This document shows, piece after piece, positions 20,561 through 34,631 of a stretch of 34,631 nt of DNA. The position numbers and the translations under genes are program-made. This stretch comes from Desulfuromonas sp. (lineage in GTDB: Bacteria; Desulfobacterota; Desulfuromonadia; Desulfuromonadales; Geothermobacteraceae). The stretch is taken from the NCBI GenBank assembly GCA_002868905.1, contig PKUA01000034.1:1-34631 (forward strand). Direction: 5' to 3'. Below the pieces are notes generated by a model. It was not told the origin of the DNA. It was given only the letters and a program-made list of their open reading frames with translations, and made no database searches. Each line of letters opens with the position of its first letter. Position 1 is the first letter of the stretch.

Positions 20561-22267
20561 TCAGTCAAGCCTTACCATCATCCCGTTGATAAAACGGGGG
20601 TCGAGTTCCTCGGCTGCCAACCGGCAGAATTCATCATCCCAGCTCGCCAGGCACCAGGCACCGAATTCGCCCGCGCCTGTCTCAAGGCTTTCCAGCCAGG
20701 CTACGCACTCCTGCCGTATTTCGGCTTTCAGGCCACCTCCATCCACAGTGACCAGACGATGCAATTGCCGTATCGCGTCTTGCCGGAGCGGCTCAGGGGC
20801 AAACGGCTTGCCGAGCAGACGGTTGGCGTATGCGGTCAGGAACATCTGCGACAACGACAGGTCATCCCCCTGTTCCGGGAGGCAACCCTCCAGATCATAT
20901 GCGTCCGGGTGTTGCAAACCGAATTCAAATATCCCGACGAATAGTCGCTGCTGTCGTTCCAGGCGATCGAGCCAAACGGAACAGAGCTGTACCTGCTCCA
21001 GGGTCATGAAGGGGTGGGTGTCATTCCTGTTCACCTCCATCAACCCCTGGTAAAACTGCGGTGAACGCTGCAGAAGCGCATCGACCAGGGACCGGTACGG
21101 CGGATCGAGAAACGCCGATATGACCGAAGCATGAATCGCATGGGCGCGATGCTGCAACTGCAGGGTCAGGGAATGCCCAAGTCGGAACAGGGATTCGAGC
21201 CAGATGGAATCGAACAGGTCGGCCGCCATTTCGGCGTTATGGCCACAGAGCTTTTCCAGGGCGATATCGAGGATGCCGTAGACCCGTTCAACGCAATCCT
21301 CGACCTGGTCGATTTCCCCGATGTCGACCTGGTCGGCCATCATCACCTTGTTCAGCAGGTAGGCCAACTCCCAGGCAACCTCGCTGGTAATTCCACGTGC
21401 GAGGACCTCTGCCAGCAGATGGACATGGTCAATGCGCGACAGGACGTACGATGGCGCCTCGACGCCATCGAGGACGTCGAACGGATTCAGCTTTCGATGC
21501 TGCTCTACGTTGAAACTTGCCGGTTCGAGCCAGCTGTAAACGCCCCGCGCCTCCAGCGGTTCGGGGAAACCCTGGTCGAGCAGGCGACCGTTGCGCCAGC
21601 GGGCAACGTTTTCCTCCAGCACGGCACTGGACTCCCAGCGAACACCCTCCATAAGTTGCAGATAAAGTCCCTGGTGATGGCGGAACAGGATATCGAGCCA
21701 GGCCCCGGCAATCTTGGCCGTCGGCTCATCGGTGAATTCGACCGAGTAACCGCCATCCTTGATCAGGGCCTCGGCCCGCTCGTCCTCATCGTCGATCGCC
21801 TCGGGGCCCCTGATGACTTTCAAATGTTTCTGCATCACCAGCGAAAGGAGTTCGAAGTCCATCTCGTCGGCGGTGCGCAGGACCTTCTCTTCGCCGCATT
21901 CGAGCAGGTTGAACATCCACTCCAGGGTCTTTTTCCGATCCAAATGGTATCCCTGCCATCCGTCCAGGTCGAGCAAGCCAACCAACTGCTCGGTCTGGCA
22001 AAGTTCCATCAGCTCGACCGTGTCCTCCGCGCCGAGTTGCCGGACCAGCAGATAGACCTCCTGCATCGGCAGGCGACGCAGCAGGTAAGGACCATCGACG
22101 GCCTCGATCAGCAAATCCAACTTTTCCTTACCGTGGGCCGACTGCACAACCATCAGGCGTTCACCCTCGGTCAGCGTATTGATGGGCCGCGCACCAATGG
22201 TCTCGGCACGTTGTATCTTGAGGAAACCGGATCCCACCGGCGCGTCGTCATTTCTCTGATCGATCAT
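20561..22267 (-). CDS. DUF6178-type protein of unknown function
   Basis: 568 aa, no signal peptide or membrane helix. Helix-rich and acidic, with repeated segments such as LLRRLPMQEVYLLVRQLGAEDTVELMELCQTEQLVGLLDLDGWQGY, RKKTLEWMFNLLECGEEKVLRTADEMDFELLSLVMQKHLKVI, and later LNPFDVLDGVEAPSY. I associate these with the DUF6178 family known mainly from Desulfuromonadales and relatives; this is recognition by eye. GGAGAG lies about 10 bases before the ATG. A long open frame exists on the opposite strand through the whole gene but is a shadow caused by codon bias. Function is unknown. Confidence 0.75.
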   Translation of the reverse strand: MIDQRNDDAPVGSGFLKIQRAETIGARPINTLTEGERLMVVQSAHGKEKLDLLIEAVDGPYLLRRLPMQEVYLLVRQLGAEDTVELMELCQTEQLVGLLDLDGWQGYHLDRKKTLEWMFNLLECGEEKVLRTADEMDFELLSLVMQKHLKVIRGPEAIDDEDERAEALIKDGGYSVEFTDEPTAKIAGAWLDILFRHHQGLYLQLMEGVRWESSAVLEENVARWRNGRLLDQGFPEPLEARGVYSWLEPASFNVEQHRKLNPFDVLDGVEAPSYVLSRIDHVHLLAEVLARGITSEVAWELAYLLNKVMMADQVDIGEIDQVEDCVERVYGILDIALEKLCGHNAEMAADLFDSIWLESLFRLGHSLTLQLQHRAHAIHASVISAFLDPPYRSLVDALLQRSPQFYQGLMEVNRNDTHPFMTLEQVQLCSVWLDRLERQQRLFVGIFEFGLQHPDAYDLEGCLPEQGDDLSLSQMFLTAYANRLLGKPFAPEPLRQDAIRQLHRLVTVDGGGLKAEIRQECVAWLESLETGAGEFGAWCLASWDDEFCRLAAEELDPRFINGMMVRLD

Positions 22268-22352
22268 CTAAGGAAACTCTCCATCGGTTTAATAATACTG
22301 TCGGTTCAATGTAAAGCACGAGCAGGGCAAGGTCAAGAAACGGAACATCAAA

Positions 22353-22381
22353 TTGGCGGCTCACACTCCTGCATGTATACT
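22353..22381 (+). promoter_or_regulatory. Probable promoter of the LolA-like/permease operon
   Basis: TTGGCG (22353-22358), a 17-base spacer and TATACT (22376-22381), a near-consensus -10. The start codon is at 22409. Confidence 0.65.
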
Positions 22382-22408
22382 GAAGAAAACTCCAACTGCG
22401 AGGAAACC

Positions 22409-23149
22409 ATGGTTCGCATCCTTTTCTCCTTTTTTCTCCTGGCGACGTTCTGCATGGCACCGGCCCGAGCGACCGAGCTCAACCTGCAGGAGTTGATTCG
22501 CAGCGTTGAAGACCAGCATTGGGGCATTTCCTCCCAGGCGGTCATGGAGATGTCGATCAAAACCACCAACTGGGAGCGGACCACCGTCATGGACGCCTGG
22601 TCCCTCGGGCGGGACTATTTCCTGATCAGGATATCCGAACCGGCCAAGGAACGCGGCGTGGCAACGCTGAAAGTCGAAGACGAAGTCTGGAACTACCTAC
22701 CGAAAGTCGACCGCACCATCCGCATTCCTCCCTCGATGATGGGTGGCGCCTGGATGGGAAGCCACATCACCAACAACGACCTGGTCAAGGCCTCCCATGT
22801 CGACGAAGATTACCTGTTCAAGATGCTCGAGGAGACCGGGGCGACCTGGCTGGTGGAAGGACTTCCCCGTGAGGATGCCGTCGTCATCTGGGGGAAGATC
22901 GTTTACCTGATCGACAAGTCGAACCGGGTGCCGATCAGGGTCGATTATTTCGACGAGGAGGGGGTCAAGGTCCGAACCATGGAATTTGACCGGGTGACCA
23001 CCGTGGGCGACAGGGAGGTCCCGATGCGCATGACCATCCGCCCGCTTGAGAAGCCGGGCGAGCTGACCGTGATGGATTACCGAGAACTCGCCTTCGACGT
23101 CGGTCTCGACAAACGGTTTTTCTCCCTGCGCCAGCTTAAGGCCCGTTGA
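22409..23149 (+). CDS. LolA-like outer membrane lipoprotein-sorting protein
   Basis: 246 aa. A signal peptide covers residues 1 to about 21 (FLLATFCMAPARA). The mature part is a beta-rich LolA/LppX-like fold: SSQAVMEMSIKTTNWERTTVMDAWSLGRDYFLIRISEPAKERGVATLKVEDEVWNYLPKVDRTIRIPPSMMGGAWMGSHITNNDLVK is the family core. Such proteins carry lipids or lipoproteins across the periplasm and often accompany MacB/LolC-type permeases. The ATG at 22409 has GAGGAAACC upstream; the open frame extending far upstream is a shadow of the DUF6178 gene. The stop overlaps the ATG of the first permease (TGATG). Confidence 0.87.
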   Translation: MVRILFSFFLLATFCMAPARATELNLQELIRSVEDQHWGISSQAVMEMSIKTTNWERTTVMDAWSLGRDYFLIRISEPAKERGVATLKVEDEVWNYLPKVDRTIRIPPSMMGGAWMGSHITNNDLVKASHVDEDYLFKMLEETGATWLVEGLPREDAVVIWGKIVYLIDKSNRVPIRVDYFDEEGVKVRTMEFDRVTTVGDREVPMRMTIRPLEKPGELTVMDYRELAFDVGLDKRFFSLRQLKAR

Positions 23150-24369
23150 TGCTTTTCACCCTCGCGCTGCGCAACCTCTGGCGCAATCGCCGCCGCACCC
23201 TGCTGACCCTCTCGGCCATGGTGGTTTCATCGGCCCTGCTCATCCTCTCGCTCGGGATATTCTCCGGAATGCTTCAGGACATGCTCGCCTCGGCCACCGA
23301 ACAGTATTACGGGCACATGCTCGTCAACCGGGAAGGCTACCAGGAAGATCGCGATCTTTATCTCAACCTGTCCTCGTCCCGGGCGCTTGACGAGGTACTG
23401 GCGGGAGAACCGGGTATCACTGCGGCATCGCCACGTCTGCGCAGTTTCGGGTTGCTCTCCCACGCCGACAAGAGCTATCCGGCCGAGTTACTGGGTGTCA
23501 TTCCACAGCAGGAGCGGCAGGTCACTACGTTCGCGGAGCACATAGCCGCCGGGACGTATTTACCCGAGAACCTTGAAAATGGCGCCGTTCTCGGTGCCGG
23601 GCTGGCAAAAAAACTCGGGGTCAAACCGGGGGACGAGCTGGTGTTCCTGACCCAGGCGGCCGACGGGAGCATCGGCAACGACTTGCTGTATGTGACCGGC
23701 ATTTTCAAGACCGACTCCAGCGGAGACAAGAGCCTTGTTCTGGTCGGGCTCCCCTGGCTGCAGCAGGTCATGGCGCTACCCGACAAGGTCCACGAGTACT
23801 CGATCCGCCTGAGCGATCCGCGCCTGGCGACGGAGGAAAGGATCAGGCTCGATGGACGGCTTCCAGCCGGGCTCGAAGCGCTCGACTGGGGAATGATGAT
23901 GCCGGAGATGCGCGAAGCGGTCGCCTCGTATGATGTCAGCCGTTTTATCGTAGTGATTATCCTCTACGTGGCAACCGGGCTCGGCATCCTCAATACCTTC
24001 TACATGTCCGTCATGGAGCGAACCAGGGAGTTCGGCATCGCCATGGCGCTCGGCATGCCGCCAGGACATATCCGCCTGCTGATTTTCCTTGAAGCGTTCC
24101 TGCTGGGGATATTCGCGCTGGTCTGCGGAGTCGGCATCGGGCTGCTGCTGACGTTATCGATGCAGACGCAGGGTATCGACCTGTCAAGCTATGTCACGCC
24201 GATCACCTATGCCGGCGGGACGATCCTGCCACGGCTCCGGACGGTGCTTGAAATTGGCAACCTGCTGGTGCCGGCCCTGCTCCTGCTGCTGGTCTGCCTG
24301 GTCGCCGCGATGTTGCCGGCCCACCGGGCAGCGAAACTGCAACCGATTGAAGCGATCAGAGAGGATTGA
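23149..24369 (+). CDS. ABC transporter permease, LolC/MacB (FtsX) family, first copy
   Basis: 406 aa. One helix near the N-terminus (residues 20-43), a large periplasmic domain (about 50-265) and three helices in the C-terminal FtsX core (about 267-290, 315-345 and 372-395). The start MLFTLALRNLWRNRRRTLLTL is shared with the second permease. Family core: ATGLGILNTFYMSVMERTREFGIAMALGMPPGHIRLLIFLEAFLLG. These proteins do not form a pore; they transmit ATP-driven movement to pull substrate from the membrane to a periplasmic partner. The start overlaps the stop of the LolA-like gene; the next gene starts one base after its stop. Confidence 0.88.
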   Translation: MLFTLALRNLWRNRRRTLLTLSAMVVSSALLILSLGIFSGMLQDMLASATEQYYGHMLVNREGYQEDRDLYLNLSSSRALDEVLAGEPGITAASPRLRSFGLLSHADKSYPAELLGVIPQQERQVTTFAEHIAAGTYLPENLENGAVLGAGLAKKLGVKPGDELVFLTQAADGSIGNDLLYVTGIFKTDSSGDKSLVLVGLPWLQQVMALPDKVHEYSIRLSDPRLATEERIRLDGRLPAGLEALDWGMMMPEMREAVASYDVSRFIVVIILYVATGLGILNTFYMSVMERTREFGIAMALGMPPGHIRLLIFLEAFLLGIFALVCGVGIGLLLTLSMQTQGIDLSSYVTPITYAGGTILPRLRTVLEIGNLLVPALLLLLVCLVAAMLPAHRAAKLQPIEAIRED

Positions 24370-24370
24370 C

Positions 24371-25597
24371 ATGCTATCCCTCGCCTGGCGCAACTTGTGG
24401 TGCAACCGACGCCGAACCATCATCACCCTGACCGCACTGGCTCTCAGCACCATGCTGGTCCAGGGAACCCATAACCTCTCCTTCGGTGTTTACCAGAGAA
24501 TGATCGATTCGGGCGTCCGGGCCGGAAGCGGCCACCTCGCGGTGTACCAGGCCGGCTACCTTGAAACCCGCGACGAAAAACTGAACTTTGCTCCGGAAGG
24601 GCTGGTCAGGGAAATTGCCGCGACCGACGGGGTCGCCGCAGCGCTGCCACGGGTTTTGCTACCGGGCCTGGCCCAATCGAGTCGGGACAGCCGCAGCATC
24701 ATTCTCACCGGCGTCGATTCCGAGGCCGAAGTAGGGATTAACCCGTTCCTGAAAGAATTTTCAAAGCCGGAACTGACCCAAATGCTCCAGGGCCGCGGCG
24801 CCGTTATTGGCGCCAAGCTGCTCAAGGAGCTGCAGTTGGAACCGGGGCAGAAGTTCGTTGTGACTGTCCAGCGCAGCGATGGGGTTCTCGGCAGCGAACT
24901 GTTCCGGGTCCGGGGTGTCGTAAAAACCGGGCTCAAGGAGATCGACGGTTCGCTGGTTTTGGTCCGCCGCGACAAGGCCGCGACCCTGGGGGACCTCGGC
25001 GGTCGAATTCACGAACTCGCGATTGTCCTGGAGAGCGCCGGGACCAGCCATCAACTCCAACCTCTCCTCGCCGCCCTGCTCAAAGAAAGACAGGGGCTCA
25101 ACCTGGTGACCTGGGAAGAATCGATGTCCAACCTGGCCAATGCCATCAAGCTCGACTACGCCAGTCAGAAGTTCATCTTCCTGCTGCTGTTGGTGATCGT
25201 CACCATCGGGGTGATCAATACCCAGCTCATGTCAGTCATGGAAAGGTTTCGCGAATTCGGCGTCATGCTCGCCCTCGGTGCGACCCCCGGCCGACTGCGA
25301 AGCCTCATCCTGTTCGAATCCTTGCTGTTAGGTGTCTGCGGGGTCATCCTCGGCACCATTCTCGGTTCATTGCTGACCTGGTACCTGGTCGACGTCGGGA
25401 TCGACCTGCGAAGTTTCATCAGCGGAGATCTCGAATTCGGTGGCGTGATTTTTGACCCGATCATGCGGGCGATGTGGGATTATGCCTGGATGGGGCAGAT
25501 CGGATGTTACGTGGTGTTGCTCGCACTGTGGGCGGCTCTTTACCCGGCATACAAGGCGGGAAAGATCAGCCCGGTTCGCGCCATGCGGCACACCTGA
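24371..25597 (+). CDS. ABC transporter permease, LolC/MacB (FtsX) family, second copy
   Basis: 408 aa, same architecture as the first permease: N-terminal helix (about 20-40), periplasmic domain, and three C-terminal helices with FIFLLLLVIVTIGVINTQLMSVMERFREFGVMLALGATPGRLRSLILFESLLLG. The start MLSLAWRNLWCNRRRT mirrors that of its neighbour, so the two likely form a heterodimer. The long open frame upstream of the ATG overlaps the first permease and is not real. No ATP-binding subunit follows: the downstream gap has only palindromic repeats and then a convergent cupin gene. The ATPase must be elsewhere or lost. Confidence 0.88.
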   Translation: MLSLAWRNLWCNRRRTIITLTALALSTMLVQGTHNLSFGVYQRMIDSGVRAGSGHLAVYQAGYLETRDEKLNFAPEGLVREIAATDGVAAALPRVLLPGLAQSSRDSRSIILTGVDSEAEVGINPFLKEFSKPELTQMLQGRGAVIGAKLLKELQLEPGQKFVVTVQRSDGVLGSELFRVRGVVKTGLKEIDGSLVLVRRDKAATLGDLGGRIHELAIVLESAGTSHQLQPLLAALLKERQGLNLVTWEESMSNLANAIKLDYASQKFIFLLLLVIVTIGVINTQLMSVMERFREFGVMLALGATPGRLRSLILFESLLLGVCGVILGTILGSLLTWYLVDVGIDLRSFISGDLEFGGVIFDPIMRAMWDYAWMGQIGCYVVLLALWAALYPAYKAGKISPVRAMRHT

Positions 25598-27887: not shown

Positions 27888-27917
27888 AAAGCCCCGACCG
27901 GATACGGTCGGGGCTTT
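27888..27917. terminator. Bidirectional terminator
   Basis: A perfect 13-bp stem AAAGCCCCGACCG/CGGTCGGGGCTTT with a GATA loop, between the convergent SlyD-like and chemoreceptor genes. A/T runs on both sides are short but fit both directions. Confidence 0.9.
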
Positions 27918-27958: not shown

Positions 27959-30325
27959 TTAAACGGTAAAGGCGCCAACTTCATCATTCAGAGCTGACGT
28001 CAGCTTATTGAGATCTTCGACCACCTCGTCAAGCTCTTTGGTACTCAGGGAGTTATCGTCGGCAATCGCCAAAACCTTGTTGACCCGGTCGAGCACCTGC
28101 TTGCTCTGGTGAGTCTGCTCGGTGGTCGCCGAATTGATTCGTTCGATCATATCCCGAACCCGGTCGATGCTCCCCTGAATCTGCCGTGAACCTTTTGCCT
28201 GCTCGCTGGTGCTCAGTTTGCCCTGGGCGGCGATCTCCTTCATGGCATCCGAAGCACGCGCAAGCTGACGAACAGTATCGTTCTGCTGCCGGATCGCGGT
28301 GGTGATCTGGGTCAGCATGATGGTGACCTGGTTGATCGACTCGGTAATCTGGCGGCTGCCGCGGCTCTGTTCCTGGGTCGCCCGGACGATGGTACGTACC
28401 TGTTGATGCGCCTTGTCGGTACTGCTGCGAATTTTCTGCAATGCGTTACCGGTCTCCTTGGAACGTTCGACTTCGTCATAGACCTTGGTCATACCGACCT
28501 GCATCGCCTTGACCGCCCCTGCAGTACCGTTCTGAAGATCGCTGATAATATCCCCGATTTCCCGGGTGGAGACTGCGGTCCGTTCCGCCAGTTCACGAAT
28601 TTCGTCGGCAACCACGGCGAATCCGCGGCCATGCTCCCCGGCCTGGGCGGCAATAATCGCAGCGTTAAGGGCGAGCAGGCTGGTCTGGTCGGCGACATCG
28701 TCAATGACGGTCAGGATTTTGCCGATATCCTTGGAGCGGGTCCCCAGGTTCTCGATCTCCTTGGCCGCCACATCGACGCTCTGGCGAATTTCCTCGATTC
28801 CGGCAAGGGTGGCCGCCACCGCTTGCGATCCGCGTTCGGCATCTTCAGTCGCAGCAGCAGCCAGGCTACTGGTCTGCTCTGCGTTATCCTCGATCTCCTT
28901 GATCGCAGCGTCGAGTTCGACAATACTGCTGGCCGTCACCTCGGTGGAGCTGTTGAGGATGTCGACATTTTCTTCGACTTCCTGGCTCGAGACGCTCATC
29001 TGGTTAATGCTGCTGCTGACATCCTCGACCGTGGCGAACAGCCGTTCCATTTGCGAGGAGATCTCTTCGATGGTGATGGCGAGTTCCAGGGTGGCTGAGC
29101 TGCTCTCCTCGACCGCTGTCACCAGGGTCGAAACCGAGTCAGCCACCTCACTGCTTGAGTCATCGATCAATTTCAGACCCAGGTGTGATTCCTTCAATTC
29201 TGTTCCCTGGGCCTCGGCACTTTCCGTAACCTGCTGGGACGACTTCTGGATCTTCTGGTTAGCAACGACCAAGTCTCCGGCCACGTTACGAACCCGCGAG
29301 ACCATCTCGCGCAAGCGCCCCATCAACTCATTGAAGGCGGTTCCGAGCTCGCCGACTTCGTCATCCCCGACCGTTTCAAGCTGCTTCGTCAGGTCCCCTC
29401 CACCGGCGGCAATTTTTTTCAGACTGCCGACAACCGCCGAAAGGGGTTGGGAGACCCCCTTGGAAATCACCAGACCGAAGAGGATGGCCAACACGGCGGC
29501 AACAAACACGATCATCACGAGCTGTTGCTTCATGGCCATTTTCGCTGACAATTCGGCACTGCGATCGAGGGCGATGACGATGTCGAGACCTGTTTCACCG
29601 AGGGTCCTCTTGAACACTGCGTAGGAGTTGTCGGCGGCCTCAAGATAACCTGTCTCATCGACTCCGACCTTGAATCCACGCAGGGCCGAGAGTGAGGAAG
29701 CAACCGCGCGGTTGCCGCGGAAAAAGGCGATATCCGCGCCGCTTAACTCCTTCACCCCCTGAACAAACCTGTCATTGAACAGGTTCGCTCCCACGAAATG
29801 GCCAACAATTTTATCCTGCAGACGAATTGGAGCAGCCGCCATGATTCCGAACTGCCCGCCGATCTGGTTGACACCTTTGCCGACCTGGCCTTCCAGGCTC
29901 TGCTTGATCAACGGATGATCAGCAGCATTTTTGATCAGGATCGCATCCCCCTGCAGGGTCGACTGCAACAGAACCTCCCCTTTATCGTTCAGGGCGAGGA
30001 CGTAATCGAGCCCAAATTCCTGTTGCAGCTTCTTGGTGATTTCAGCGAGCTGATCGGTATCCGCAGCGAGGGTCGCATAATAAGTCGCGTTCACCACATC
30101 CGCCCCGGAGCTGATCATCGAAACATAATTGAGCAGTTCCTGTTCAGATTGAGCCGTCGCCCGCTGAACGAAGTTGCCGGTTTTTTCCGCAAGCAGCAAC
30201 ATGTCGTCGTTGATGACTTTGCCGGTAAACCCCGACATCAGGATGAGAGTCACGATCAACGGCAAAACCGAGAGCGAGACAAGGGCCAGCAGGATTTTCC
30301 AACGGAGTTTCAAACTGTTCAGCAT
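27959..30325 (-). CDS. Methyl-accepting chemotaxis protein
   Basis: 788 aa membrane receptor. Membrane helix 1 is about residues 11-31 and helix 2 about 269-288. Between them is a periplasmic sensor of about 235 residues that looks like a Cache-type domain ([84 protein letters not shown]). A HAMP segment follows (about 289-342), then a long coiled-coil signalling domain with the hairpin tip at 546-580 ([38 protein letters not shown]), which contacts CheA and CheW. No C-terminal CheR-binding pentapeptide is present. The ligand is unknown; its neighbour upstream is a solute-binding protein in an electron-transfer operon. Confidence 0.93.
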
Positions 30326-30440
30326 ATCCGGGCTCCAGACTTACAACGAGGCATCACCTGACGCCTGACAAATTGGGCAGGAAGCGGATTCTGCGAAAAA
30401 TGGCGGGTTCTCCTCCAAACCATTGCAGAACATGGGGCAA

Positions 30441-30469
30441 AGATTAGCATGAAACCACCAGAATTGCAT
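30441..30469 (-). promoter_or_regulatory. Possible promoter of the chemoreceptor gene
   Basis: On the minus strand ATGC-TAATCT (-10 at 30441-30446) with a weak -35, ATGCAA (30464-30469), at 17 bases. It lies in the 211-base gap after the solute-binding gene, so the receptor may be transcribed separately. Confidence 0.35.
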
Positions 30470-30536
30470 ATCAAATCAAAGGATCATCCTCACGAAGCTA
30501 GTCCGTACAAGCTGACGACAGCAATCGGGCAAACAA

Positions 30537-31517
30537 TCAGTAAAGGACCTCGTCGGCCGCCTCCAGCAATGATTTCGGCAGGGTGATGCCGAGCTTGCCG
30601 GCAACGCTTCGATTGACCATCAGCTTGGCCGTCTTCCCCACCCTGACCGGCAACATAAACGCCTGCTGCCCGGCCAGCAGCTGCAGAGCGTGCACGCCGA
30701 GAACCTTCCCCTGCTCTTCCGGATCGGGTTCCAGGGTGGCTAATGCACCTTGACCGGCAAGCCCCGGAATCTGGGAAATAACCGGAAGCTTTGCTGACCC
30801 GGCAAATTCCATGATCCGGTCGGAAACACTCGCCACAAGGGCAGCATCGGCGACAAACAATAAATCGGTCCGGTTCGGCAGGGTTTTCAGGTCCCCATCG
30901 AGATCCCGGGTGTTGCGCAGGTTGACCTTGACCAACTCGCTGCCGGCAAGTTGACAGTTCTTTTCAAGGTCGGCGAGTTGCCTCCTGGCGCCCGGATCCG
31001 ATTCCGAGTAGATCACACCAATTCGCTTGCCTGACAGAATCGGTCCCATGGCATTGAACATCCGATCGAGCGGAACCTGCGAGGCGGCACCGGAACGGTT
31101 GACACCAGGTGCAGCCAGGTTGTTGACGATGCCGAGCCCCAGCGGGTCATAGACATCGGCAAACAACACCGGAACATCCTCAACCATGTCGGCCGCGATA
31201 GCGGTCGACATGGCACCGTAGGTGATAATCAAATCCGCCCCTGCGGCGATCGATCGGCGCAGACTGTTGGTCAGCGACATCTTGTCCGGGTTCGGATACT
31301 GGGCGAAAATCTGCAGCTTGCTCTCGTCGAAACCACCGGCGCGGACGATCTTTTCAAACGCCTCGTGCGCCTGATGGTAGCGGGGCAGATCGCCGGTCAC
31401 GACGGCCGCCATCAATTGCTTGGCCGACACGTTGGCGTAAGAGAGCACGATCAGAACCGTTGTAGCGGCAAAGATGCGCAGCAGCTTCGATTTCAAATGA
31501 ACCACCTGAATTGTCAT
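30537..31517 (-). CDS. PF04392-type ABC transporter substrate-binding protein
   Basis: 326 aa. A signal peptide ends near residue 33 (LLRIFAATTVLIVLSYANVSA) with no lipobox, so the protein should be free in the periplasm. The two-lobe fold shows AAVVTGDLPRYHQAHEAFEKIVR, ADLIITYGAMSTAIAADMVEDVPVLFADVYDPLGLGIV, RIGVIYSESDPGARRQLADLEKNC and LPVISQIPGLAGQGALATLEPDPEEQG. Proteins of this family bind amino acids or other small solutes, but many occur without transporter genes. Here, the permease and ATPase are absent; the gene is 23 bases downstream of the porin gene and clearly in its operon. A sensor or redox-related role is possible. Confidence 0.85.
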   Translation of the reverse strand: MTIQVVHLKSKLLRIFAATTVLIVLSYANVSAKQLMAAVVTGDLPRYHQAHEAFEKIVRAGGFDESKLQIFAQYPNPDKMSLTNSLRRSIAAGADLIITYGAMSTAIAADMVEDVPVLFADVYDPLGLGIVNNLAAPGVNRSGAASQVPLDRMFNAMGPILSGKRIGVIYSESDPGARRQLADLEKNCQLAGSELVKVNLRNTRDLDGDLKTLPNRTDLLFVADAALVASVSDRIMEFAGSAKLPVISQIPGLAGQGALATLEPDPEEQGKVLGVHALQLLAGQQAFMLPVRVGKTAKLMVNRSVAGKLGITLPKSLLEAADEVLY

Positions 31518-31540
31518 TCCATCACCTGCCTCTCTTCAGC

Positions 31541-33595
31541 CTACCAGAGGTACGCCAGGTTCGCCGAGTAAACCTGGACGTTACCGTCGAAGACATCCGA
31601 GGTCTTGTCCGAATAGTCGTCGTACTGGTAAGAAACGCCGAAGGTAAGATTCTCCACCATCTCCCATTCCATGCCGGCCTGGGCACCTGTCCGACGCACA
31701 TCGACCTTGGAAATATCTTTGAGCCCGGAGGAATCCGCGTTAAAAATCCCTTCCGGGGCGTAATCGACCAGGAATCCCGGATTGAAATCCGCATCGGAAC
31801 GAACATAGTAGCCATTGGCATACAGTTTCAGATTTTCAAGAGGTCGGATGTTCAGATAGGCGCTGTAGCTGGAAACCGTCTGCTCGTAATCGACGCTCTG
31901 GTCGACGAAGGCATACCCCTCGGCACCTTCGTTACCGAACAAGAGATCCTGCTGGGTCGTGCTGGTCAGCAGGGCATAATCACACCCCATGCTGACAACT
32001 GCATTGGGAGAGAACCAGAAGCCGAGGGTCAGGTTCGCCTGCTCGTATTCCCGGTCGAGTTCGTAAACCAGGGGATCCTCACCAGGCTGAACAATCTGAT
32101 GCTGGTTGTTCTCCTCCCAGCGCCCTTCGAGGCTGACCGTACCGCCGATGTAGCCCGCCGCCTGCATGGAGAGGTTGACAAAGGCGCGATGCCCATCTTC
32201 CAACGACGTCCCGTAGGCCGGGTCGTCCGAATCGAGATATTTGTAGTATCCGTTCATCTTGACTTTACCACCGCCGAACGGTCGACTATGAAAACTGAGC
32301 TTATAGCGATTATTCTGCTCCTTGCGTGGCAACTCCCAGACCGGATCGATGACCACGGGGACCCCGAATCCGCTGTGAGGCAAGGCCCCGCCCGTGTTGT
32401 TTCGCTCCAGGTCCTCCCGCTCGAACTCCGCCTTCAACGAGAGGTTCGTCGTCGGTCTGAAACTAACCATGGCACCGTAGGTGTCCCGTTCAAGATCGAT
32501 ATTGTCCCGAACAGCCAGCGGATTGCGGATTCCACTCAGCCCGGCGGTGTATAGCGAGGACGGGTTGTCGTTATCCAAGTCAAGCATCCGGTAACGGAAA
32601 TTGAAAGACCAGTGCTCGTTGACATTCCAGGAAAAGTCGCCCGCAGCCTTTTGAAATTCTGTCTCCACCTCGACCGGGCCGACTTCCGGCCGTTCCAGAT
32701 CGCTGCGGTTTTGCCGTTCTCCGAAACTGTAGCTGGCCGCCGCCACGAGTCCCCCGTCGAGCGAGGTATTCAACTTCAACGTCGTCTGGTTGAGACGGGA
32801 ATCCGGAATCTCGTCATGCTGGTACTCCCCTTCCGGCCGCAAAGTGTGGGCAGCGAACTCGTCCCGGGGCGTCTCCGTCCGGTTATTGAACTGCCGGTAG
32901 AGATGCTCCAGCACAACATCGACCGGCCCGAGATGGGCATCGACACTGGCGGTCACTTCATCCGTCACCTGGTCGATCTCATTGCTGCGGCTCTGCAGGT
33001 GACAGCTGGTGCACTGTTCTTTGGCGTACCTGAGCTGATGCTCCCCCCTCTTTTCGTAACGCCAGTATGTCACATTGAGGTGGGCCGGGTAACTACTCAG
33101 CTTCGCCCTGAATTTCGCTTCGTAACGACTCAACTCCCGTCCGTATTCCGCCCCCGGGTCGTCATCAAAATATTCAACCCTGGCTGCCGGAGGATCGGAA
33201 CCGTCGTTCGGCGTCGCGATAGCAGCCTGTCGCGCCCCGTCGACATCAACATCATAAGGGATGTGATCGAGGTTGTGATAAAAGCGCTCGGCGTTCAAAT
33301 TCAACCGGATCAGACTGCTTCGGTTGTAATCCGCACCGAACGACCATTCATTCTCACCGACGTAGGTCCCTTCGAAAATTTCGTATTTGTAATTGGCCGC
33401 ACGCTCGACACGAAAATGCCCGGTCGCGCTCGACTCAAGATCACCGTATTCCTGGGCGCGGGCAGGCGCATCCTCCATCTCGACCACGCGAATGCCGGCT
33501 TCGATTTCCGCATTGAAAATTTCGGAGGCAAAGCTCATTCCTCCCGTGAACATCAACCCGGCTAGCGTTATCAACATTATAACCATCTGGTGCAT
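31541..33595 (-). CDS. MtrB/PioB-family outer membrane beta-barrel protein with a CXXCH motif
   Basis: 684 aa. A signal peptide ends at ASA-like FASE near residue 24. The rest has regularly spaced amphipathic beta strands (for example YKLSFHSRPFGGGKVKMNGYYKYL, LKLYANGYYVRSD) and ends in VYSANLAYLW, with a C-terminal aromatic as expected for an outer membrane barrel. MtrB/PioB proteins form a sheath around a decahaem cytochrome to carry electrons across the outer membrane. The upstream gene here is a decahaem cytochrome, 46 bases away. Unusual: CTSCH at residues 195-199, a potential covalent haem site. The ATG at 33595 has GAGAGGA about 9 bases upstream; the open frame before it is not protein-like. 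Confidence 0.88.
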   Translation of the reverse strand: MHQMVIMLITLAGLMFTGGMSFASEIFNAEIEAGIRVVEMEDAPARAQEYGDLESSATGHFRVERAANYKYEIFEGTYVGENEWSFGADYNRSSLIRLNLNAERFYHNLDHIPYDVDVDGARQAAIATPNDGSDPPAARVEYFDDDPGAEYGRELSRYEAKFRAKLSSYPAHLNVTYWRYEKRGEHQLRYAKEQCTSCHLQSRSNEIDQVTDEVTASVDAHLGPVDVVLEHLYRQFNNRTETPRDEFAAHTLRPEGEYQHDEIPDSRLNQTTLKLNTSLDGGLVAAASYSFGERQNRSDLERPEVGPVEVETEFQKAAGDFSWNVNEHWSFNFRYRMLDLDNDNPSSLYTAGLSGIRNPLAVRDNIDLERDTYGAMVSFRPTTNLSLKAEFEREDLERNNTGGALPHSGFGVPVVIDPVWELPRKEQNNRYKLSFHSRPFGGGKVKMNGYYKYLDSDDPAYGTSLEDGHRAFVNLSMQAAGYIGGTVSLEGRWEENNQHQIVQPGEDPLVYELDREYEQANLTLGFWFSPNAVVSMGCDYALLTSTTQQDLLFGNEGAEGYAFVDQSVDYEQTVSSYSAYLNIRPLENLKLYANGYYVRSDADFNPGFLVDYAPEGIFNADSSGLKDISKVDVRRTGAQAGMEWEMVENLTFGVSYQYDDYSDKTSDVFDGNVQVYSANLAYLW

Positions 33596-33641
33596 GATTT
33601 TTTGTCCTCTCCTGATCAGGCTTACAAATCCACACAGTCCA

Positions 33642-34631
33642 TCAGCGAGCGATAAACGTTCCGCGACCATGGCTGGACGGGATGTCGGTGCCATGGATGG
33701 CCGAATGACAATCGGTGCAGCGATTGAAGAACGCCTGCTTCATCGAACCCGACGAAAGTGCGCCTTTCGCCGAATGGCTGTCCACCGAAAGATGCCCGCT
33801 ATGACACTGCATACAGAGGAATGGCTGGACACTCGTCAGCAGGGGGTCTACCGGAGAACCGTGAGGACGATGACAGTTGCTGCATTTCTCGGTGACATCA
33901 GCATGTTCATAGACAAACGGTCCCTGTTTGTCCATGTGGCACCGTGTGCAAGTCTCCTTGACTGTAGATCCGACCATCATGTTTTCGTTACTGCTGCCGT
34001 GGGGATTATGGCAGTCGGTACAGACCACCTTACCTTCGGGGACCGGGTGGTGGGAAAACTGGCTGAACTGCATCTTGATATTCTGATGACAGTTGTAGCA
34101 GAGCTCGGCGGTATCCTGCCGGCTGACTTTCTGAGTCGGGCCTTCATGCAGCTTGTGGCAGTCCAAACAACTGACGCCGCTGTTGGCGTGAATGCCGGTG
34201 TGCCAGAAGGTGAGGTTCGGGGTCGAGGCCGCCGCGTGACACTTGAGGCAGATCTGCGACTTGGCCTGGCTCGGAAATTCCTTCAACTGGAGGAACTGGC
34301 TGGTGTCGCAGCGATTGTTCTTGTCCGCGTTTTGAATGGCGAGGCTCCCGGGGCCGTGACACGACTCGCAGTTGACCAGCGGCAGGCCTGTCTCCACGGA
34401 AATCTGGTCGCCGTGCACCGACACCGCGAAATCCCGCTTGATTTCATCATGCTTATGGCACTTGGCCAGGCAGTTGTCATTGCCGACGTAGTCGGCCATG
34501 AAATTACCGACCATGAGCCGCTCGTACTCCTTGACCGGCATGATCGGTTTGCTTTCACGCAACGAGTCGCAGGCCGTCAGCAGCAACAGCGGCAACAACG
34601 TCAGACAGAGCAAGCTTGACAGTTTCAAGGG
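33642..34631 (-). CDS. Decahaem c-type cytochrome, MtrA/DmsE-like lipoprotein (5' end at window edge)
   Basis: About 328 aa visible. Numbering is from a TTG at 34628, which lies three bases from the edge; the true start may be outside. A lipoprotein signal ends with LTAC (Cys20). Nine CXXCH motifs are present, with first Cys at residues 87, 127, 154, 177, 203, 227, 249, 272 and 304, plus one CX3CH (CLAKCH, 53-58) as the first site, giving ten potential haems. MtrA-like cytochromes plug the MtrB-type porin encoded next. Asp follows the lipid Cys. Free histidines for distal ligands are common (for example HNPHG, HRPHG, FSHHPVPEG). The next gene is the porin. Confidence 0.9.
   Translation of the reverse strand, partial: PLKLSSLLCLTLLPLLLLTACDSLRESKPIMPVKEYERLMVGNFMADYVGNDNCLAKCHKHDEIKRDFAVSVHGDQISVETGLPLVNCESCHGPGSLAIQNADKNNRCDTSQFLQLKEFPSQAKSQICLKCHAAASTPNLTFWHTGIHANSGVSCLDCHKLHEGPTQKVSRQDTAELCYNCHQNIKMQFSQFSHHPVPEGKVVCTDCHNPHGSSNENMMVGSTVKETCTRCHMDKQGPFVYEHADVTEKCSNCHRPHGSPVDPLLTSVQPFLCMQCHSGHLSVDSHSAKGALSSGSMKQAFFNRCTDCHSAIHGTDIPSSHGRGTFIAR

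What the first reader, a model, noticed from the sequence alone, without database searches (positions are those of the whole stretch)
30537..34631. Solute-binding protein within an outer membrane electron conduit operon, beside a chemoreceptor
Order on the minus strand: decahaem lipoprotein, MtrB-like porin, PF04392-type binding protein (23-base gap), then a Cache-type chemoreceptor after 211 bases. No ABC permease or ATPase is present. The binding protein could sense a shuttle or acceptor in the periplasm and pass the signal to the receptor or regulate the conduit. I do not know of a described system with this make-up.
Basis: inference. Interest (0 to 1): 0.7.

Follow-up and report, generated by a model that had tools for sequence, protein, structure and literature searches.

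The report
Electron conduit operon with chemical sensor
A bacterial gene set that carries electrons through the outer membrane nearly always carries a small binding protein with it, paired either with parts of a lipid-type transporter or, as here, with a chemotaxis receptor, which suggests that cells sense or handle an unknown compound at the site where electrons leave.

Summary
The gene order is real. The porin model is MtrB-like (Z 22.6, rmsd 3.2 A, 568 residues), the cytochrome has ten haem sites, the binding protein is PF04392 and the receptor sensor is double-Cache. The association is not peculiar to this genome: 93 of 103 porin pieces in 277 genomes of the class are followed by the binding-protein gene. 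Seventeen have the receptor downstream; none has both. In its order the receptor-bearing loci lie in a Cys/Met biosynthesis cluster (17 of 17 fetched), where the receptor also occurs without the conduit: the best argument for a chance neighbour. Against it, in this genome the four genes lie together outside that cluster, and a Nitrospirota contig repeats the order with a different sensor. Three of the genome's five PF04392 genes directly precede a receptor or sensor-kinase gene. I think the protein reports a ligand, probably no aromatic amino acid, to the receptor as LuxP does to LuxQ. Ligand and contact are untested.

The parts
33642..34631 (-). decahaem c-type cytochrome, lipoprotein-like N-terminus (LLLTAC, by eye), OmcK/DmsE-related; 5' end at the contig end
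   Evidence: TIGR03508 268 bits, over cut-off; NF041028 GSU2203 261 bits, cut-off 325; best PDB relative 6r2q_A; 9 CXXCH + 1 CXXXCH
31541..33595 (-). outer-membrane porin of MtrB fold (GSU2204-related branch), one CTSCH haem motif at residue 195
   Evidence: NF041027 147 bits, cut-off 350; MtrB 6r2q_B Z 22.6
31518..31540 (-). 23-base gap porin to binding protein
30537..31517 (-). binding protein, PF04392 (TrpX-like), signal-peptide-like N-terminus without lipobox (read by eye)
30326..30536 (-). 211-base gap; no sigma-70-like promoter and no terminator found inside it by simple scans
27959..30325 (-). methyl-accepting chemotaxis protein: double-Cache periplasmic sensor (about 30-262), HAMP, signalling domain
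27888..27917 (+). terminator-like hairpin (13 pairs) between the receptor gene and the convergent FKBP gene

Best explanation
The locus encodes an outer-membrane electron conduit (decahaem lipoprotein with an MtrB-fold porin) and a dedicated soluble periplasmic binding protein. In most relatives conduit and binding protein are encoded with an MCE (Mla-type) ABC transporter or its ATPase. In the window's lineage the protein instead lies before a double-Cache chemoreceptor. I propose that it binds a small compound in the periplasm and, when loaded, docks on the receptor's sensor as LuxP docks on LuxQ, so that swimming is steered by a compound that matters where this conduit works. Shown by computation: gene order, folds, recurrence, the either-or of ATPase and receptor, and that the four genes lie together outside the usual cluster. 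Inferred: electron transport itself, ligand binding, docking, taxis and the nature of the ligand.
For: 93 of 103 porin pieces are followed by the binding-protein gene (model-end gaps 4-144 bases), 70 have the ATPase within 4.5 kb upstream, 17 the receptor downstream, 0 both. Thirteen receptor-linked binding proteins of the order, the window's included, form one clade (100/99). In the window's genome the four genes lie together outside the Cys/Met cluster that neighbours the other receptor-linked loci of the order (17 of 17 fetched loci, two of them the same contig), while a sister copy of the receptor (97/95) stays in that cluster without conduit. A Nitrospirota contig has cytochrome-porin-binding protein-receptor, the last two overlapping by four bases, with an sCache_3 sensor. 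Of five PF04392 proteins in the genome, three lie directly before a signalling gene: this one, one before a dCache chemoreceptor (44 bases) and one before a hybrid histidine kinase (7 bases). The sensor model matches LuxQ across both subdomains (Z 15.0, rmsd 2.7 A, 192 residues). A set of conserved residues is kept in 47-49 of 49 binding proteins of all locus types. The genome has four CheA genes.
Against: No contact between the proteins and no ligand was tested. Four loci have the receptor directly behind the porin with no binding protein between, and the sister receptor in the Cys/Met cluster has none beside it, so the receptor may do without it. The 211-base gap in the window is longer than the 22-52 bases of four relatives. 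Receptors beside the conduit are not one clade (p 3e-17). The sister placing of the two receptors of this genome rests on long branches, and a tree with the window's copy beside those of G001 and G002 is not rejected (p 0.07). LuxQ is not the best structural match: DctB scores higher over both subdomains (Z 16.2, rmsd 4.8 A, 216 residues) and CitA over one (Z 17.4, 120 residues), and receptors solved with directly bound ligands (Tlp3, PctA, Mlp24) score 13-14.
Confidence: 0.5

Rival explanations
1. Chance neighbour: the conduit with its binding protein once landed beside a chemoreceptor that belonged to a Cys/Met biosynthesis cluster; the receptor has nothing to do with conduit or binding protein.
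For: In 17 of 17 fetched receptor-linked loci of the order outside the window, MetX, MetY or CysK genes are neighbours. The window's own genome and G002 hold the receptor in that cluster without conduit. Receptor-linked copies are not one clade. Four loci lack the binding protein between porin and receptor.
Against: In the window the four genes stay together away from that cluster; the Nitrospirota contig repeats the order with another sensor family and without such neighbours in its 21 kb; spacings of 22-52 bases in four relatives.
Confidence: 0.3
2. The binding protein is at heart the shuttle of an MCE-type ABC transporter, in the place that MlaC holds in the Mla system (recalled), moving a hydrophobic compound between the inner membrane complex and the conduit porin; the window-type locus is a remnant that lost the transporter.
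For: 70 of 103 porin pieces have the ATPase upstream. ATPase and porin co-occur: 89 of 100 porin genomes against 41 of 177 others (Fisher p 6e-28, relatedness not corrected). Ten of 37 named loci and 20 ATPase loci of the class have the binding-protein gene behind transporter genes without porin. In families f22-f25 the permease lies elsewhere in the genome while the ATPase stays with the conduit.
Against: The five genomes of the window's family show no match to this ATPase, permease or the 500-aa partner at the limits used, yet two of them keep the binding protein with the conduit; the solved relatives of the protein bind amino acids, not lipids; in f22-f25 no room for an MCE gene is left between ATPase and cytochrome.
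Confidence: 0.35
3. The protein no longer binds a small solute but is an assembly or stabilising factor for the conduit in the periplasm.
For: It tracks the porin more closely than the ATPase or the receptor does (93, 70 and 17 of 103).
Against: A set of polar residues is kept across locus types, which looks like a working site; loci without porin keep the protein.
Confidence: 0.1

Closest known systems
MtrAB and OmcK/OmcL-type (GSU2203-GSU2204) porin-cytochrome conduits
   Same: Decahaem cytochrome of the DmsE type next to a porin of MtrB fold; the Mtr complex 6r2q is the best structural relative of both. GSU2204 is listed as an MtrB/PioB family barrel (PMC13188914, passage seen); GSU2203 (OmcK) and GSU2204 are up-regulated with hematite and magnetite (PMC4070692, table passage seen); OmcKL homologues are proposed as a conduit in a syntrophic sulfate reducer (PMC10553843, passages seen)
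   Different: Cytochrome and porin score below the curated GSU2203 and GSU2204 cut-offs; a binding protein plus an MCE transporter or chemoreceptor is in the locus; no outer cytochrome gene in the part held
LuxP-LuxQ and other receptor-docking binding proteins
   Same: Binding protein next to a receptor with a double-Cache-like sensor; LuxQ matches over both subdomains. Docking of binding proteins on receptors is a known, widespread mechanism (PMC9602780, passages seen; PMC8396549, passages seen)
   Different: Receptor is a chemotaxis protein, not a kinase; binding protein is PF04392; docking not shown; lies in an electron-conduit locus
TrpX-type PF04392 proteins (SP1069, CD0873, VC_1101)
   Same: Same family; about 265 residues aligned
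   Different: Five polar residues invariant in the three aromatic-amino-acid binders, which I picked as likely pocket residues, are replaced in all or nearly all of 22 family members; both specificity residues named in PMC6816091 (passages seen) differ too (window I250 and P266, mapped by eye)
Mla/MCE lipid transport systems
   Same: MlaE, MlaF-like ATPase and MlaD/MCE protein in relatives
   Different: MlaE is over the cut-off only of the general TIGR00056, MlaD below that of the OM-asymmetry model; coupled to an electron conduit and a PF04392 protein; MlaC was not searched for

Membership tests
MtrAB-type porin-cytochrome conduit | Large outer-membrane barrel of MtrB fold | tested here: met
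   Model pLDDT 84; MtrB 6r2q_B Foldseek TM 0.71/0.75, Z 22.6, next chain 16.6
MtrAB-type porin-cytochrome conduit | Decahaem cytochrome of MtrA/DmsE type encoded beside the barrel | tested here: met
   TIGR03508 over cut-off; ten haem motifs
MtrAB-type porin-cytochrome conduit | Electrons pass the outer membrane | not testable with these tools
   needs biochemistry
GSU2203/GSU2204 (OmcK/OmcL) families of NCBIfam | Curated cut-offs | tested here: not met
   261 of 325 and 147 of 350 bits: a related branch, not the same family
PF04392 (ABC_sub_bind) | Over the gathering score | tested here: met
   107 bits, cut-off 25.9
TrpX tryptophan-binding protein | NCBIfam NF041285 cut-off | tested here: not met
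   122 of 390 bits; likely ligand residues replaced
ABC importer with binding protein | Permease and ATPase genes beside the binding protein | tested here: inconclusive
   None between cytochrome and receptor, but the contig ends upstream; MCE-type permease and/or ATPase in relatives
dCache chemoreceptor | HAMP and MCP signalling domain plus double-Cache sensor | tested here: met
   PF00015 and PF00672 over cut-off; sensor model (mean pLDDT 76) matches DctB, LuxQ, Tlp3 and PctA over both subdomains. Sequence hit to CHASE4 is below cut-off and no Cache family was hit
Binding-protein-dependent receptor (LuxP-LuxQ kind) | Binding protein contacts the sensor | not testable with these tools
   complex prediction or pull-down needed
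MCE/Mla system (in relatives) | MlaE, MlaF and MCE-domain genes together | tested here: met
   PF02405, PF00005, PF02470 in G026; not in the window's genome in this form

The most novel reading that the evidence does not exclude
A class-wide envelope machine that couples electron export to handling of a specific compound: an MtrB-type haem conduit, an MCE-type ABC transporter that moves a lipophilic compound (perhaps a redox shuttle or quinone-like lipid) and a shared binding protein. Where the transporter is not in the operon, a chemoreceptor takes its place, so that the same binding protein turns from transport helper into the cell's compass toward that compound.
Probability: 0.22. Interest if true: 0.87.

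Novelty: new variant of a known kind. Interest (0 to 1): 0.64.

Why it matters
Porin-cytochrome conduits are usually thought of as wires only. A branch followed by a solute-binding protein gene in 93 of 103 cases, together with an MCE transporter ATPase or a chemoreceptor in most, implies that the wire serves or senses a particular molecule. For the related OmcK/OmcL conduits I saw only expression data and a proposed role in interspecies electron transfer. Finding the ligand would show what this branch is for and would make testable how bacteria find extracellular electron acceptors.

Tried and rejected
An upstream half of the window's own operon on another contig: the MlaE/MlaD genes at the start of contig C47 looked like a candidate because the contig breaks there, but the permease is only 36% identical to the conduit-type one and the 500-aa partner has no match in the genome, so I dropped it; the real upstream sequence remains unknown.

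Close relatives in viral contigs and, with the single sequence, in genome contigs: nothing confirmed; the alignment query worked. The plasmid collection gave 34 records; the ten listed are under 28% identical. A one-clade history of the conduit-linked receptors was tested and rejected. The first receptor tree was spoiled by three long branches and was rebuilt without L154, L095 and L113; L168 was left out because my script read it as a fragment. Promoter and terminator scans of the 211-base gap found nothing.

Rows dropped: for I copied 128 rows of the printed list, leaving out most of the weaker rows at its end (the list itself was cut by the tool), and 29 receptor rows (all 18 of 495 bits or more and 11 weaker); I read the remaining printed receptor rows by eye against the porin places and none lies beside a porin. 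In one search the ten porin pieces without a binding-protein gene within 400 bases are: 4 with the receptor directly behind (G040, G067, G071, G072), 3 beside Cys/Met genes with neither (G059, G063, G064), and 3 cut or broken (G074, G145, G202). G065 has a binding-protein fragment and the receptor on a short contig that lacks the porin and is not among the 17.

Literature searches (search listings, and passages where named): (GSU2203, GSU2204; MtrB, decaheme, MlaD, Geobacter; 20 of 84 listed; PF04392, chemoreceptor; OmcK; porin-cytochrome, MCE; decaheme, chemotaxis protein, substrate-binding protein; no paper; CD0873; LuxQ, LuxP, Cache; 8 of 12 listed; decaheme, MlaE; no paper), 105 (porin-cytochrome, chemoreceptor). 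None of the listings or passages seen describes this gene set; most subscription journals are not held.

Full report
What is there. The window is one whole contig (C70) of a 3.30 Mb, 84-contig genome. On its minus strand the last four genes are a decahaem cytochrome (start at the contig end), a porin, a PF04392 binding protein and a chemoreceptor. Gaps are 46, 23 and 211 bases. A 13-pair hairpin at 27888-27917 separates the receptor gene from a convergent FKBP gene; simple scans found no terminator or sigma-70-like promoter in the 211-base gap. The cytochrome has nine CXXCH motifs and one CXXXCH, scores 268 bits with the DmsE-family model (cut-off 192) and 261 with the GSU2203 model (cut-off 325); its best PDB relative is chain A of 6r2q, the Mtr complex (that this chain is MtrA is my inference, as the molecule name printed is plainly wrong). 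The porin has no MtrB hit by sequence, a marginal Porin_2 hit and a sub-threshold hit to GSU2204 (147 of 350 bits), but its model (24 sequences, pLDDT 84) matches MtrB best by far. The receptor has HAMP and signalling domains and a double-Cache sensor by model (10 sequences, mean pLDDT 76).

Does it recur? Of 57 relatives, 20 have a strong porin hit, and in 19 of these the binding-protein gene lies directly behind the porin gene (the exception is G040). Over 277 genomes of the class, own included, there are 103 porin pieces in 100 genomes: 93 are followed by the binding-protein gene within 400 bases, 70 have a MlaF-like ATPase within 4.5 kb upstream, 17 have the receptor downstream (13 behind the binding protein, 4 directly behind the porin), and none has both ATPase and receptor. 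Among 37 loci of named organisms found with the binding-protein alignment, 27 have the porin gene directly before it and 10 have MCE transporter genes directly before it without a porin; ten have the receptor behind. The titles name Desulfuromonadales and deltaproteobacterial genomes, Geobacteraceae (Geomonas silvestris and G. limicola, Geomobilimonas luticola, Geobacter sp. AOG1 and two MAGs) and one Nitrospirota MAG.

The part the window does not show. In 14 loci of unnamed relatives the order is TPR protein, a 500-aa protein of no family, MlaE, MlaF, MlaD, cytochrome, porin, binding protein (in one, L077, the contig ends before the first two genes; domains typed in G026). Seventeen genomes of the class that carry the porin elsewhere have a separate locus with the ATPase, an MlaD-sized gap and the binding-protein gene, and three genomes without porin hit have the binding-protein gene directly behind the ATPase; six named genomes gave both kinds of locus. 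In families f22-f25, which I take to be Geobacterales because the named Geobacteraceae loci look the same, the ATPase lies directly before the cytochrome while the matching permease lies elsewhere in the genome: 73 ATPase loci are not next to the permease, all in these families, against 50 that are. ATPase and porin co-occur: 89 of 100 porin genomes have the ATPase, against 41 of 177 others (relatedness not corrected). Fourteen relatives have the MCE set and no porin hit, or in G050 only a weak one; of their loci one breaks off inside a cytochrome gene (L105) and two end within 1.1 kb of MlaD. The window's own genome shows no match to the 500-aa protein or to this type of ATPase and permease at the limits used.

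Where the receptor comes from. In 17 of 17 fetched receptor-linked loci of the order outside the window (L069 and L133 are the same contig), MetX, MetY or CysK genes are near neighbours; G001 and G016 have CysK, a PLP enzyme, cytochrome, porin, binding protein, receptor, MetY and, further on, MetX. The window's genome (contig C9) and G002 hold the receptor at that place without the conduit. The receptor tree puts the four receptors of the window's family in one clade (100/98), with the window and C9 copies as sisters (97/95); both are long branches, and a clade of the window's copy with those of G001 and G002 is not rejected (p 0.07). A single clade of all conduit-linked receptors is rejected (p 3e-17). 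The binding proteins of receptor-linked loci of the order do form one clade (100/99), with the Nitrospirota one apart. The simplest history is that the conduit with its binding protein came to lie beside a receptor in a Cys/Met cluster, and that in the window's lineage the four genes then moved, or were copied, together.

Is the neighbourhood functional? Three facts speak for it. First, the four genes stay together away from the cluster. Second, the Nitrospirota contig (L154) has cytochrome, porin, binding protein and receptor, the last two overlapping by four bases, with an sCache_3 sensor and no hit to the seven Cys/Met-cluster proteins searched. Third, of the five PF04392 proteins of this genome, three lie directly before a signalling gene: the window's, one 44 bases before a dCache chemoreceptor on C10, and one 7 bases before a hybrid histidine kinase on C79. 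The other two (C36, C56) precede a poly(A)-polymerase-like and an acetyltransferase-like gene. The genome has four CheA genes. The sensor model aligns with LuxQ over both subdomains (Z 15.0, 2.7 A, 192 residues); but DctB scores higher (Z 16.2, 4.8 A, 216 residues), CitA higher over one subdomain (Z 17.4, 120 residues), and receptors solved with directly bound ligands 13-14. So the fold allows docking and does not prove it. LuxP regulating LuxQ is the known precedent (2hj9 and 1zhh; PMC8396549, passages seen).

What might it bind? The three solved relatives bind Trp, Tyr and Phe (PMC6816091, passages seen). Among the polar residues invariant in these three I picked five as likely pocket residues (T, Q, D, D, N at window A102, A106, S146, A225, A226); none of 22 family members keeps the first, third or fourth, one keeps the second, and for the last the printed counts cover 19 of 22, none of them N. 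The choice of the five is mine; the passages seen do not name them, and other invariant positions differ as well. The family keeps its own set (Y47, Q73, P75, D78, S81, N84, R87, Y100, G101, E268, Q269) in 47 to 49 of 49 proteins, whichever locus type. This suggests one kind of ligand, other than an aromatic amino acid; but no structure of this protein was predicted, and some of these residues may be structural. Position 82 is Trp in all 20 proteins of loci with ATPase and porin and in the Nitrospirota one, but Leu or Ile in the 13 receptor-linked ones and Leu in 12 of 13 transporter-only ones.

Verdict. I commit to a conduit-dedicated binding protein that signals to the receptor in the window's lineage (0.5), with a chance neighbour (0.3) and a transport shuttle (0.35, partly compatible with the first) as rivals. 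It is a new variant of a known kind: conduit, binding protein, MCE transporter and chemoreceptor are each known, and binding proteins that dock on receptors are a known mechanism (PMC9602780, passages seen), but I found no description of this combination in the searches made.

Noticed in passing
L084 (own contig C36) 5808-11214: A second, diverged copy in the same genome: TPR protein, cytochrome, porin (27% identity), binding protein (31%), with neither transporter nor receptor beside it.
   Followed up: partly
L157 (own contig C9) 2550-13900: A chemoreceptor paralogue sits inside a CysD-CysN-CysK-MetY-MetX cluster, which hints that this receptor family may sense a sulfur compound or sulfur amino acid. 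Gene names other than the PLP enzymes are read from the sequence and recalled.
   Followed up: partly
500-aa protein, e.g. L075 1547-3049: A conserved protein with repeated W-P-F/L-F motifs and no Pfam or NCBIfam match accompanies the MlaE-MlaF-MlaD genes in the fetched Desulfuromonadales loci whose contig reaches that far.
   Followed up: no
L136 5313-6723 and similar Geobacteraceae loci: An ABC ATPase is kept next to the conduit, behind a 149-aa membrane-like protein of no family, while in the families that look alike the matching permease is elsewhere in the genome.
   Followed up: partly
window 31541-33595 and the 47 porins: Single haem motif in the barrel: CXXCH in 21, CXXXCH in 16 and none in 10 of 47 porins (some are the same locus fetched twice); absent in the six Geobacteraceae ones and the Nitrospirota one. 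In the window model it begins at a two-residue turn between two long strands.
   Followed up: partly
window 27959-30325, residues 553-566: The receptor hairpin reads [13 protein letters not shown], where I recall NAAVEAARAGE in the E. coli receptors; the signalling part after HAMP is about 448 residues long, which would fit a very long (64-heptad) class. Comparison from recall, not from a call.
   Followed up: no
L076 8474-9506 (G047) and G050:C9:47146-48579: MlaD of G047 is read in two frames (frameshift or sequencing error); the 500-aa gene of G050 holds one TGA.
   Followed up: no
window 21131-25597: Plus strand: a LolA-like protein and two FtsX-type ABC permease genes, on the other strand and apart from this locus. 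The rest of the window was not typed by family search.
   Followed up: no
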